Source of the DNA: Dermatophagoides farinae | Taxonomy: Eukaryota > Arthropoda > Arachnida > Sarcoptiformes > Pyroglyphidae | Reading direction: 5' to 3' | NCBI RefSeq assembly: GCF_024713945.1 | Contig: NC_134684.1 | Location: forward strand, 2,275,001-2,339,000 | DNA length: 64,000 nt | Shown here: piece by piece, positions 6,002-9,313 of the stretch | How positions within the stretch are numbered: the first letter of the stretch is position 1 | Layout: every line of letters begins with the position of its first letter | Translations under genes and position numbers: made by a program | The notes under the pieces: model-generated | What the model was told of the DNA's origin: nothing | Seen by the model: the letters and a program-made list of their open reading frames with translations, nothing else | The model's database searches: none

Positions 6002-6688
6002 AAATGTTATTTGTCTTGACAACAATTTGACATCGAATGAAGGAAGAAATGATGATCAATTATTTGATTTTGTCATATATGAATATGAATGATAATAATA
6101 TATGTAATAATAGCCATTTCTGATTTGAGATTCATTTTTGTTTCAATTCAAATGATCAAATCGAATAGTAGTAGTAGAATCATTTTATTTGCCATAATGT
6201 CATTTGTGACAAATATAATAACAAGAAAAAAAACAAATACAAAAATGATCTCTTTTTTTCTTGTTTCTTTCTCTTTTTTTTTGTTTGTTTTGTTTTGTTT
6301 TACTAATGAATCTTCATTCTCTTCATATACATATGAATGGAATGGAATGGAAAAACAACAACAACAACAACAAAAGCAAAAGAAAAGCTATGATGTAACA
6401 ACTTGTATATTGATGCAGGATGATGATGATATTGTGTACTTGACCGACTACAATTTAAGAAAAAATTTTTTTTTATTTGATCATGATAATGATTGATGGA
6501 TGAATGACCATTTTTTTTTTGTGTGTGTATGTACACACACATGTGTTTATATTGAACTAAAATTAGACCACATATGTGGTTGTTTATTATTCAAAATTAT
6601 TGATTGTCAATTCAATGCCATTTTCAATATGTTCGATTTGAATATTATCATTCGAATTCAAATTCGGATGTTTTTTTTTGATTCAGAC
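4579..6688. other. Gene-free spacer left of the inverted-repeat element
   Basis: No supported gene. It contains AT-rich DNA, (CA)n tracts near 4711-4740 and 5971-5999, a TTTTG pentanucleotide run near 4984-5008, and CAA and ATG/GAT tracts. Open frames here are broken by low-complexity sequence and show no domain. Confidence 0.6.
5971..5999 (+). repeat. (CA)n microsatellite
   Basis: 29 bases of perfect CA repeat, preceded by a short GC-rich stretch (cgcgcccg). Confidence 0.9.
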
Positions 6689-6870
6689 CGAAAATAGCGA
6701 AAAATAAAATAGCGAAAGTCGAAAATAGCGAAATCCGAAAATAGCGACTGACGAAAATAGCGACTGACGAAAATAGAGAAAGCCGAAAATAGCGAAAACC
6801 GAGAATAGAGAAAGCCGAAAATAGCGAAAGCCGAGAATAGAGAAAGCCGAAAATAGCGAATGAAGATACG
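6689..6870 (+). repeat. Left tandem array of 16-bp units
   Basis: About a dozen copies of the 16-bp unit gaaaatagcgaaagcc and its variant gagaatagagaaagcc, with the outermost copies diverged. The array reads open in several frames on the minus strand and gives repetitive peptides, which are not believed to be real proteins. Confidence 0.9.
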
Positions 6871-6960
6871 TATACGAAAAAAGCGAAAGTGATCAAACAT
6901 ATATAAATGAAATGAAATGTCGCTGCGAACAGTTCTCAAAAGCATTGTCAAAGTTACAGG

Positions 6961-7033
6961 CACGAAAATCATACCACATTTTACCCTCTTTTAGCGCTGT
7001 ACCACTGTTTCTTTCTGTGGTATGATTTTCGTG
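6961..7033. repeat. Hairpin with 18-bp perfect arms
   Basis: cacgaaaatcataccaca at 6961-6978 is the exact reverse complement of 7016-7033, with a 37-nt loop. It lies in the spacer of the inverted-repeat element, immediately inside the left arm. Confidence 0.9.
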
Positions 7034-7270
7034 TGTATACGCTTGTTTAGATTTTTCATAATTTGATAGTCCTGATAACAACTGTTGAATTTTTTTGTTT
7101 TTTATGTTAATGATAAAAATATTTTTTAATCAACAACTTATGGATCCAATTGACATTTAATCAAAAGGTCCTTCTTAGGGCCGAATGCTTTTCACAAATA
7201 TTTCAATTTCACATCATAAGGCACCGATGAACCGATTTATAGTATTTTAGATTTTGCACCTAGATTGTTT

Positions 7271-7339
7271 GTCTCGGTTCATTAGTTTTCTCCAAACCTC
7301 ACCGAAGGTGAGGTTTGGATTAAACTAATGAACCGAGAC
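7271..7339. repeat. Hairpin with 33-bp arms and 3-nt loop
   Basis: Arms 7271-7303 and 7307-7339 are reverse complements with two adjacent mismatches. The outer 18 bp (gtctcggttcattagttt) and inner 13 bp (tccaaacctcacc) pair perfectly around the loop gaa. The telomere-type repeat begins two bases after the right arm. Confidence 0.92.
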
Positions 7340-7341
7340 CA

Positions 7342-7387
7342 CCTAACCTAACCTAACCTAACCTAAACTAAACTAAATTAAACTAAA
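7342..7387 (-). repeat. Interstitial telomere-type (CCTAA)5 tract with degenerate tail
   Basis: Five perfect ccctaa-type pentamers (cctaa) occupy 7342-7366, followed by degenerate actaa/attaa units to about 7387. On the minus strand this is (TTAGG)n, the canonical arthropod telomere repeat. A further cctaacctaaa occurs near 7443-7453. The tract lies inside the inverted-repeat element, far from any chromosome end visible here. Confidence 0.85.
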
Positions 7388-7669
7388 CACATTTTTGATA
7401 CATCAATATTCGTTCGGCAATCCACCGGTGTAGTTCATCCGCCTAACCTAAACCATCATCATAAGCAAAGTTGAATTCGGACATAAAATTCTACTGAGCA
7501 TTCGAGCTTTCTCTTTTATTCCACATTTTTATTCTTATGTGTTGAAATTTGAATTGATTAATTTAAATTAAATTGATTGAATAAAAAATTCATTTTTTTT
7601 ATTTATTGTGTTAAATGGACATTCATAAATGAAATCATAAGTTTATGTTTGATCACTTTCGCTTTTTTC

Positions 7670-7850
7670 GGATACGTATTTTCATTCGCTATTTTCGGCT
7701 TTCTCTATTCTCGGCTTTCGCTATTTTCGGCTTTCTCTATTCTCGGCTTTCGCTATTTTCGGCTTTCTCTATTTTCGTCAGTCGCTATTTTCTTCAGTCG
7801 CTATTTTCGGCTATCGCTATTTTATGCCATCGCTATTTTTTTTTTCGCTG
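7670..7850 (-). repeat. Right tandem array of 16-bp units, inverted relative to the left
   Basis: The reverse complement of this array aligns with the left array, including the same order of unit types and the same actgacg variants near the outer end. The two 32-bp higher-order units are shared, with one base difference in the left copy. Confidence 0.9.
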
Positions 7851-8337
7851 TTGTTGGTATGAACCTTTTTTTTTCTCTTTCCAATAACCACATATATGGT
7901 GTCGCAATCTAGTGATGAAAATAAGAACTAAGGTTTCAAAAAAAAAAAAAAAATTCATTTTATCAAAAAAAAAACAAAAAAAAAATTAAAAATTTAAATT
8001 ACCCTACCATAATCATCATTTCAATTGAAAAAGGATGTGAAATTAAAAAAAAATTTTTTATATGATCACAGATTATGGATAAAAAACGCAAATATTGTAA
8101 TAAAAATGAATATAGATGATAGATTACAAATGAAAATTAAAAAATAAAAATAAAAAATTTTACAACCTGATGATTCATTTTGATATATTTTGACATTATA
8201 AAGGTTGAACAATAACCATATTGTTTTTTTGGATATAAAAATCAATGTCATTTTTGGGATAAAAAATTCATTCTTAATCTCTCATATATTTTGAGATTTT
8301 TCTTGTTTGAACAAAGAAGAAAATCATCAATTTCATC
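7851..8337. other. Spacer and promoter region of the group-9-like protease
   Basis: A- and T-rich sequence with no gene. A TATA-like tataaaa at 8234-8240 lies about 100 bases upstream of the protease ATG and is the best promoter candidate. Poly-A runs occupy 7938-8000. Confidence 0.4.
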
Positions 8338-9313
8338 ATGAAATTCGCCACCATTTTTGTATTTATTGCTATTGGAACATCCGTAGTGATCGGTGATCAT
8401 AGTGAAGAACAAGCTATTCGTCTTCCATTGCCTAAAGCTATAAATGAACGTTTTCCATGGATGATCAATGAACCAATCACAAATGGTGAAAGAATCGTTG
8501 GCGGTGAAAATGCATCACCCGGTGATGCTATTTATCAAATTGCATTGTTACGAAAAGATTCATTTACCTGTGGTGGTTCACTTATATCATCAAGAACCGT
8601 ATTGACTGCTGCTCATTGTGTTTTTGGGTGAATAATTACCTTAATGGTTACCTTTCTAGGATTAAATTTAAAATTGATTTTTTTTCCATTTTAAATAGTG
8701 ATGAAGCATCACCATCATATTTCAAGATCCGTTACAATACATTAGATCGAACTAATGGTCCAACGATTGGTGTTAGTAAAATTTATCGCCATAGTTTATA
8801 TTCATCAACGACCATTGATTATGATGTTGCTACATTGATTTTATCTGAACCATTTACACCATCGGCAAATGCCGATATTATTTCATTGACCACAGCCGAA
8901 CCAGCTGATAATACACAACTTCAACTTACTGGCTGGGGTAGACTTAAATCCGGTGGTACAATACCTACCCTTTTACAGATTGCAACTATATCGAAAATGT
9001 CTAGAACAAAATGTTCGAATATTTGGGGTTCAGTAAATGCCATCACTAATCGAATGTTGTGTGCACATAGTAAAAAACAATCAGCATGCAATGTAAGTAT
9101 CTAACTGTAACAAAATCAAAACAAAAAAATAAACTAATTTCAAATCACAACAAAAAAAATCAACAGGGAGATTCTGGTGGTCCATTAGTTTACAATGGAC
9201 ATCTGGTGGGAGTTGTTTCTTGGGGCCCGTCCACCTGTCTGTCAAACACTTATCCAACCATTTATAGTAATGTTGCAACTCTACGTAATTGGATCATTTC
9301 GAATACAGTTTAA
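8338..9313 (+). CDS. Chymotrypsin-fold serine protease, mite allergen group 9-like
   Basis: Three exons, 8338-8627, 8699-9092 and 9167-9313, with introns of 71 and 74 nt, encode a 276-residue preproenzyme. A signal peptide covers about residues 1-19. A propeptide follows, ending at GER, and the mature chain starts [18 protein letters not shown], which differs from the published Der p 9 N-terminus at only two of 18 positions. The catalytic triad is complete: TAAHC, the Asp in TIDYDVATL, and GDSGGP. The residue at chymotrypsin position 189 is Ser (SACNGDSGGP), so a basic P1 preference is not expected; Der p 9 has been described as collagenolytic and chymotrypsin-like. It is probably a secreted digestive protease shed in faeces. 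Polyadenylation signals AATAAA lie at 9446 and 9466. Confidence 0.92.

What the first reader, a model, noticed from the sequence alone, without database searches (positions are those of the whole stretch)
6689..7850. Nested inverted-repeat element: foldback arms made of 16-bp tandem repeats
Two arms of about 212 bp are near-identical in inverted orientation and each is itself a tandem array with 32-bp higher-order units in the same order. Inside the 744-bp spacer are two further hairpins (18-bp and 33-bp arms) and a telomere-type repeat. This matches the architecture of Foldback-type elements, which carry no transposase when non-autonomous. If transcribed, the locus would fold into long double-stranded RNA; dust mites are reported to lack piRNAs and to use siRNAs against repeats, so it could also be a small-RNA source. 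High arm identity suggests recent origin or gene conversion.
Basis: partly seen in the sequence, partly recalled or inferred. Interest (0 to 1): 0.75.

Follow-up and report, generated by a model that had tools for sequence, protein, structure and literature searches.

The report
Dust-mite Mutator-type foldback transposon relic
This is a stranded, transposase-less copy of a jumping gene whose two mirror-image ends are built from 16-base repeats; it belongs to a set of related foldback elements in the dust mite Dermatophagoides farinae, one of which looks recently active.

Summary
The element runs 6680-7865: two 222-bp arms (205 of 222 bases alike, no gaps) of 16-bp units, a 742-bp spacer with two hairpins and a CCTAA tract, and nine T on each side. 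It is not a local inverted duplication: pieces of the same arm lie at 18 other places in the genome (Dermatophagoides farinae). One copy, with both arms, encloses the only match to Pfam Mutator transposase (PF20700) found in this assembly, a broken fragment. The spacer's hairpin core recurs in three further foldback families with different arms; two of these show clean 9-bp target duplications. So this is most likely a non-autonomous Mutator (MULE)-type foldback element, closest in build to Tm1 of root-knot nematodes, now apparently immobile. The arms' outer 57 bp differ by side and tend to match other copies by side, while the inner 165 bp are 97.6% alike and share a 32-bp repeat seen nowhere else; the core hairpin is more perfect here than in 13 other loci. 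Both suggest inverted-repeat-templated correction. The window's own 9-bp duplication is a homopolymer, hence weak, and a small-RNA role could not be tested. A new member of a known kind.

The parts
6671..6679 (+). left copy of a possible 9-bp target duplication (TTTTTTTTT)
   Evidence: identical to 7866-7874, exactly outside the conserved ends; homopolymer, T9 at 265 of 64000 positions
6680..6901 (+). left arm, outer end GATTCAGACC, array of 16-bp units, inner motif
6680..6736 (+). side-specific (left-type) outer part of the arm
   Evidence: 44 of 57 against the right arm; nearest to L020 and, on average, to other left ends
6866..6901 (+). conserved inner motif ATACGTATACGAAAAAAGCGAAAGTGATCAAACATA
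   Evidence: found at other loci
6914..6959 (+). middle-domain piece shared with L012, L013, L023, L024 and others
6962..7034 (.). hairpin 1 (about 18-bp arms), a separate small repeat with relatives at L025, L043, L044, L045
7117..7235 (+). middle-domain piece shared with L027 (which has a left-type F1 end)
   Evidence: 81.5%
7222..7388 (+). core shared with families F2, F3 and F4: hairpin 7271-7339 and CCTAA tract 7341-7376
7457..7643 (+). right-hand middle domain shared with L015 and L016
   Evidence: 84.7-85.7% matches running into the arm
7644..7865 (-). right arm, outer end GGTTCATACC read from outside
7809..7865 (-). side-specific (right-type) outer part of the arm
7866..7874 (+). right copy of the possible 9-bp target duplication

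Best explanation
A non-autonomous foldback element of the Mutator (MULE) superfamily. An element with these ends was inserted by a Mutator-type transposase acting in trans, which duplicated 9 bp of target (nine T here). The 16-bp units of the arms presumably served as repeated transposase-binding sites. The inner arm arrays and the core hairpin were made alike, here or in the parent copy, by inverted-repeat-templated correction (gene conversion or template switching between arms). It is now apparently immobile: no transposase of its own, and only a broken fragment of the right kind seen in the genome. Shown: arms, siblings, a transposase fragment between the arms of a sibling, the shared core, 9-bp duplications in two sister families, side-specific ends and near-identical inner arms. 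Inferred: that a PF20700-type enzyme moved this copy, that the units bind it, the correction mechanism, and present immobility.
For: Arm pieces at 18 other loci. PF20700 fragment between the two arms of L010, above Pfam's cut-off and the only match in the genome. Exact 9-bp flanks in 7 of 10 F2 and 4 of 4 F3 copies scored, and in 2 of the 3 F1 copies scored, one of them post hoc. All 13 other core matches of 140 bp or more lie in (12) or beside an array of (1, L026) F2-F4 elements. Terminal 24 bp of F1-F4 agree in register. Side-specific ends, private 32-bp repeat in both arms, uneven arm differences. Core hairpin pairs 31 of 33 here against 24-27 in 13 other loci.
Against: The window's duplication is a T run. 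L048, L010 and L012 (F1, two ends each) show no duplication (L010 and L012 by eye). The transposase fragment covers only profile 1-103 of 357 and has a stop; a nested origin inside L010 is not excluded. No catalytic MULE domain was found between F1 arms; the one PF10551 match lies in a gene without arms. F1 against F3 ends are weak (10-11 of 24), and the start of the F4 end was set by its likeness to the others. F3 arms differ in unit number in 3 of 4 copies, so matched arms are not a rule.
Confidence: 0.82

Rival explanations
1. A foldback element moved by another transposase (for instance P-type, as Galileo), its arms convergent with Mutator-type elements.
For: Foldback build arises in different superfamilies (PMC3169594 and PMC3573991, passages); the PF20700 piece is short.
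Against: PF20700 piece between F1 arms; exact 9-bp duplications in F2 and F3. P-type transposases were not searched for.
Confidence: 0.1
2. A retained hairpin-RNA locus: the inverted arms are transcribed and diced into siRNAs that silence relatives, and are kept for that.
For: One long stem in the fold; dust-mite siRNAs come from dsRNA master loci (section 9 of PMC5805368); the arms have stayed alike.
Against: No transcript or small-RNA data here. The homogenised pattern is explained without selection. It could be true besides the transposon origin.
Confidence: 0.1
3. A local inverted duplication of a small satellite-like array, not a mobile element.
For: The arms are longer here than at the other F1 loci read.
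Against: Siblings at 18 loci, conserved ends, two-ended copies, a 112-bp miniature L048.
Confidence: 0.02
4. Assembly artefact (one arm a misassembled copy of the other).
For: Inverted repeats can mislead assemblers (general knowledge); no reads or second assembly were available.
Against: The arms differ at 17 of 222 sites and end in the two side-specific types seen apart at other loci.
Confidence: 0.02

Closest known systems
Tm1, Mutator/Foldback family of root-knot nematodes (PMC3169594; passages seen)
   Same: Composite arms of a variable number of short tandem units (13-15 bp there, 16 bp here), unlike outermost motifs at the two ends, a conserved inner motif, a hairpin in the middle of some elements, 9-bp target duplications, mostly transposase-less copies, a Mutator-type transposase in the family.
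   Different: No sequence relation was tested. The Tm1 transposase is Phantom-like (FLYWCH + MULE); the piece found here is PF20700. Tm1 arms of one element often differ in unit number; here they match and share a private repeat.
Tetris of Drosophila virilis (PMC4079207; passages seen)
   Same: Non-autonomous foldback with tandem repeats in the arms, 8-10-bp duplications, autonomous partner not found.
   Different: 220-bp units that seeded satellite DNA; here 16-bp units and no large array seen.
FB / NOF of Drosophila melanogaster (recalled; nothing read)
   Same: Foldback arms of short tandem repeats, Mutator-type relative.
   Different: Not compared by sequence here.
Galileo of Drosophila (PMC3573991; passages seen)
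   Same: Foldback build, subfamilies with differing arms, chimeric copies.
   Different: P-superfamily transposase; the repeats of its two arms vary independently in the F subfamily, unlike the matched arms here.

Membership tests
Foldback elements (structural class) | long inverted ends made of tandem sub-repeats | tested here: met
Foldback elements (structural class) | dispersed copies sharing the ends | tested here: met
   18 other loci
Mutator (MULE) superfamily | 9-bp (8-10) target duplication | tested here: inconclusive
   Window: T9 on both sides. F1: 2 of 3 scored exact (L014 with a post hoc right end), L010 and L012 none by eye. F2 7 of 10, F3 4 of 4, F4 0 of 1
Mutator (MULE) superfamily | a Mutator-type transposase in a family member | tested here: met
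   PF20700 fragment between the arms of L010, above cut-off but broken and only profile 1-103 of 357
Mutator (MULE) superfamily | catalytic MULE domain encoded between such arms | tested here: inconclusive
   PF10551 search: one match in the genome, 26.5 bits, below the cut-off of 27.6, in a gene without arms; six frames without introns only
Phantom subclass of MULEs | FLYWCH + MULE transposase between the arms | tested here: not met
   Such a gene relic exists at C3:1396392-1397278 but no arms were found around it
P superfamily (Galileo type) | P/THAP transposase | not tested
   no search made
siRNA hairpin locus | Dicer-type small RNAs mapping to the locus | not testable with these tools
   no small-RNA data held

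The most novel reading that the evidence does not exclude
In this mite one transposon lineage keeps its end pattern and an inner hairpin core but exchanges or rebuilds what lies between: four families with different arm units (15-17 bp, or 38 bp) share the core and, in register, the ends. Arms and core are kept palindromic by repeated self-templated correction. If so, palindrome repair, not transposase selection alone, shapes foldback elements, and the core hairpin has a job of its own (in transposition, replication or as RNA).
Probability: 0.25. Interest if true: 0.6.

Novelty: new member of a known kind. Interest (0 to 1): 0.45.

Why it matters
It places a Mutator-type foldback lineage in a dust-mite genome whose published repeat table lists 0.09% DNA transposons and, in the table and passages seen, names no such family (PMC11074847). 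It gives a compact natural series (old, young and miniature copies in one 62-Mb genome) for asking how foldback arms grow and stay matched. The sister family F2, with three copies identical over 928 bp and a fourth rounding to 100%, raises the question of what transposase moves it. In an animal without piRNAs, self-complementary elements are natural test cases for siRNA control of transposons.

Tried and rejected
Local inverted duplication: rejected by sibling copies. Empty site from paralogous flanks: the 300-bp left flank matches only itself; the 470-bp right flank matches itself and seven short places (38-80 bp), none across the insertion point. The CCTAA tract as a telomere seed: it sits in the core of dispersed elements and related tails lie in matches near contig ends, so capture or descent is likelier than telomere healing. 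FLYWCH/MULE gene at C3:1396392-1397278 as the F1 transposase: no arms found around it. A tRNA-like stretch between arm pieces in L018: not pursued. Literature, all in the open-licence library only: no paper holds Dermatophagoides with foldback; Acari with foldback and transposon gave one tick paper, not opened; a search for at least two of Dermatophagoides, Mutator-like and MULE gave 163 papers, 8 listed, none of those 8 with Dermatophagoides; the main text of the 2026 arthropod MULE survey PMC13359780 holds mite, Acari and foldback 0 times (passages only); quasipalindrome with template switching and terminal inverted repeats gave none.

Full report
Where it is. The window is contig C8, 2275001-2339000, of a 62,435,336-base genome. 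The element lies about 470 bp before a frame at 8338 that looks like a trypsin-type protease (my reading; no family search was run on it).

The observation. Two arms in inverted orientation, 229 nt and 91% complementary by the repeat finder, are each an array of 16-bp units. Using ends seen in other genomic copies (GATTCNGACC at the left, GGTTYCGACC at the right), the arms are 6680-6901 and 7644-7865, 222 bp without gaps and with 17 differences. The spacer holds an 18-bp-arm hairpin, a 33-bp-arm hairpin and a CCTAA tract. The RNA fold of 6680-7865 is one long stem closed over these, -520.18 kcal/mol, without shuffles at that length.

A family, called F1 here. A genome search with the element gave 88 matches, itself included (40 of 43 candidates scored). 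Patterns with up to three mismatches gave 44 array, 34 left-end and 36 inner-junction matches, against 0, 5 and 13 for the control patterns, so some of the weaker end and junction matches are chance. In the fetched loci, 18 places besides the window carry a recognisable piece of an F1 arm: L009-L022, L027, L048, L049, L050 (L017 is divergent). L009 and L011 are two sides of an inverted segmental duplication, so not independent. L010, L012, L014 and L048 have two ends; L012 has two left-type ends. L048 is a 112-bp miniature. Arm arrays are shorter at the other two-ended copies.

The transposase link. Between the two arms of L010 lies an open stretch that matches Pfam Mutator (PF20700), 28.6 bits against a cut-off of 26.5. 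The same model finds only this place in the genome (30.6 bits, profile 1-103 of 357, one stop inside). It is a broken fragment, and a nested origin is not excluded. L082, from a further array-bearing locus, matches the stretch just before this frame at 77% over 258 bp and, by eye, the first bases of the frame. A separate FLYWCH plus MULE gene relic, as in Phantom transposases, lies at C3:1396392-1397278, with no arms found around it.

Sister families. The core 7222-7388 recurs elsewhere: of the 13 other matches of 140 bp or more, 11 lie in F2 elements, one in F3 and one beside an F4 array. F2 (L030-L040): 928 bp with 225-bp arms 96% alike, three copies identical over 928 bp and a fourth rounding to 100%, degenerate 15-bp units (measured in L072, L076, L078, L079 and L081). 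F3 (L073-L075, L077): arms of 412-510 bp with 15-bp and 38-bp units; the core was found in L077 only. F4 (L026, L079, L080): 16-17-bp units AAAATAGCCAA; L080 has two arms, and L079 and L080 keep only part of the core. The terminal 24 bp of F1-F4 agree in register (mean 14.0 of 24, the better of the two F1 ends being taken); 0 of 20,000 draws from whole loci and 4 of 20,000 from the arms do as well. Caveats: F1 against F3 is 10-11 and F3 against F4 9 of 24, and where F4 begins was set by likeness to the others. Three short core fragments (L083-L085) were looked at and are degraded; L083 carries an F4-like unit.

Target duplications. Exact 9-bp flanks: F2 in 7 of 10 copies scored (L034 and L036 show 8 bp shifted by one base; L072 none), F3 in 4 of 4, F4 in 0 of 1. 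L032 and L037 were not scored because their ends were misplaced or truncated; the end of L030 was moved by one base. In F1 the window has nine T on both sides exactly at the conserved ends. The chance of nine T at a given place is 265 of 64,000, so this is suggestive and no more. L014 has TTCAATTTA on both sides, with the right end taken 6 bp inside the usual one, a choice made after seeing the match. L048 (5 of 9), L010 and L012 (by eye) have none. Random pairs of 9-mers from the window agree at a rate of 1.3e-4.

Arms made alike. The differences between the arms are uneven: 13 in the outer 57 bp, 4 in the inner 165 bp (Fisher p 6.8e-6; the cut was placed after seeing the alignment). The outer ends are side types: mean scores between ends of the same side at different loci (30.1 and 30.8) exceed those across sides (20.3). 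The window's right end is nearer to other right ends (30.1) than to left ends (17.4). Its left end leans the same way less clearly (28.7 against 23.9, with two right ends, L013 and L048R, scoring above five of the nine other left ends). Ten left and six right ends were used, the L009/L011 pair included; two of the 12 left ends (L012a, L027) were left out. The 32-bp higher-order repeat with GAGAATAGAGAAAGCC occurs twice in each arm and in no other locus then held, nor in the other matches. So the inner arms were made alike after the sides had parted, here or in the parent copy.

The core hairpin tells the same. In 14 rows from 13 other loci the stem pairs 24-27 of 33; here 31 of 33. The left side here reads TCTCGGTTCATTAG, the mirror of the right side, where the others read TCAATACAATAG. 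Only copies with an exact central motif were counted; diverged ones (L010, L011, L012, L076, L079, L080) were not. The loop reads GAA in nine of the 14 rows and in the window, and its reverse complement TTC in five. This is what template switching in a quasi-palindrome, or gene conversion between arms, would leave (mechanism recalled, not tested). Against a general rule: F3 arms differ in unit number in three of four copies (10.1 and 8.1; 5.1 and 7.1; 13.5 and 8.5; but 7.1 and 7.1 in L074). In Tm1 the arms of one element often differ in size, and in the Galileo F subfamily they vary independently.

The inner hairpins. The 18-bp-arm hairpin (6962-7034) is a separate small repeat with relatives at L025 and L043-L045; L009 and L013 have the surrounding sequence without it (by eye). 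The core hairpin is bounded by ATGAACCGA on both sides, and L027 has the same neighbourhood with one ATGAACCGA and no hairpin (by eye): either an empty site with a 9-bp duplication or a deletion between repeats.

How it works, most likely. A Mutator-type foldback element moved in trans and then stranded, with arms and hairpin made alike by templated correction. That the arm units bind transposase is inference; secondary binding sites in such repeats are reported for Galileo (passage). The siRNA idea is open: dust mites make siRNAs from dsRNA master loci (section 9 of PMC5805368) and a read-through transcript would be double-stranded, but nothing here shows transcription.

Novelty. The kind is known (Tm1, Tetris, FB). 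I found no description for mites in the searches named under Tried and rejected, which cover only the open-licence library. A new member of a known kind, with an unusually clear record of arm and hairpin correction.

Noticed in passing
L030-L040 (C1, C2, C3, C4, C6, C7), e.g. C4:3130229-3131156, C3:4113851-4114778, C2:1407398-1408325: A young foldback family (F2), 928 bp, three copies identical over their whole length, 9-bp duplications in 7 of 10 scored: a sign of recent activity with no intact Mutator transposase found by PF20700 or PF10551.
   Followed up: partly
L073, L074, L075, L077 (C2:3183570, C4:828690, C5:2408359, C1:4311802): A third foldback family (F3) with arms of 412-510 bp, 15-bp and 38-bp units, and exact 9-bp duplications in 4 of 4.
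   Followed up: partly
C3:1396392-1397278 (L070:6393-7279): FLYWCH plus MULE reading frames (Phantom-like transposase relic) followed by a LEM-3-like GIY-YIG frame and next to a Pao-type retroelement relic.
   Followed up: partly
L018:1506-1590 and L017: tRNA-like stretches lie between two F1 arm pieces: ARAGORN calls an unassigned tRNA in L018; in L017 seen by eye only.
   Followed up: no
C1, C2, C3 and C10, mostly near contig ends: Part of the L010 interior (query 819-1040) matches repeats near contig ends at 73-77%: exchange between foldback interiors and subtelomeric repeats.
   Followed up: no
L009 and L011 (C6:2866500-2870500, C6:2902000-2907000): Two F1 copies lie in an inverted segmental duplication about 35 kb apart, 96.5% alike over 1.2 kb.
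   Followed up: no
L010:3163-3506 and L012:1031-1379: Two F1 copies share about 350 bp of sequence just outside an arm (88%), as if both sat in copies of another repeat.
   Followed up: no
L060 (C2:8393400-8394931): The end of this contig, where shown, is almost pure C and T without telomere repeats; possibly an assembly or sequencing artefact.
   Followed up: no
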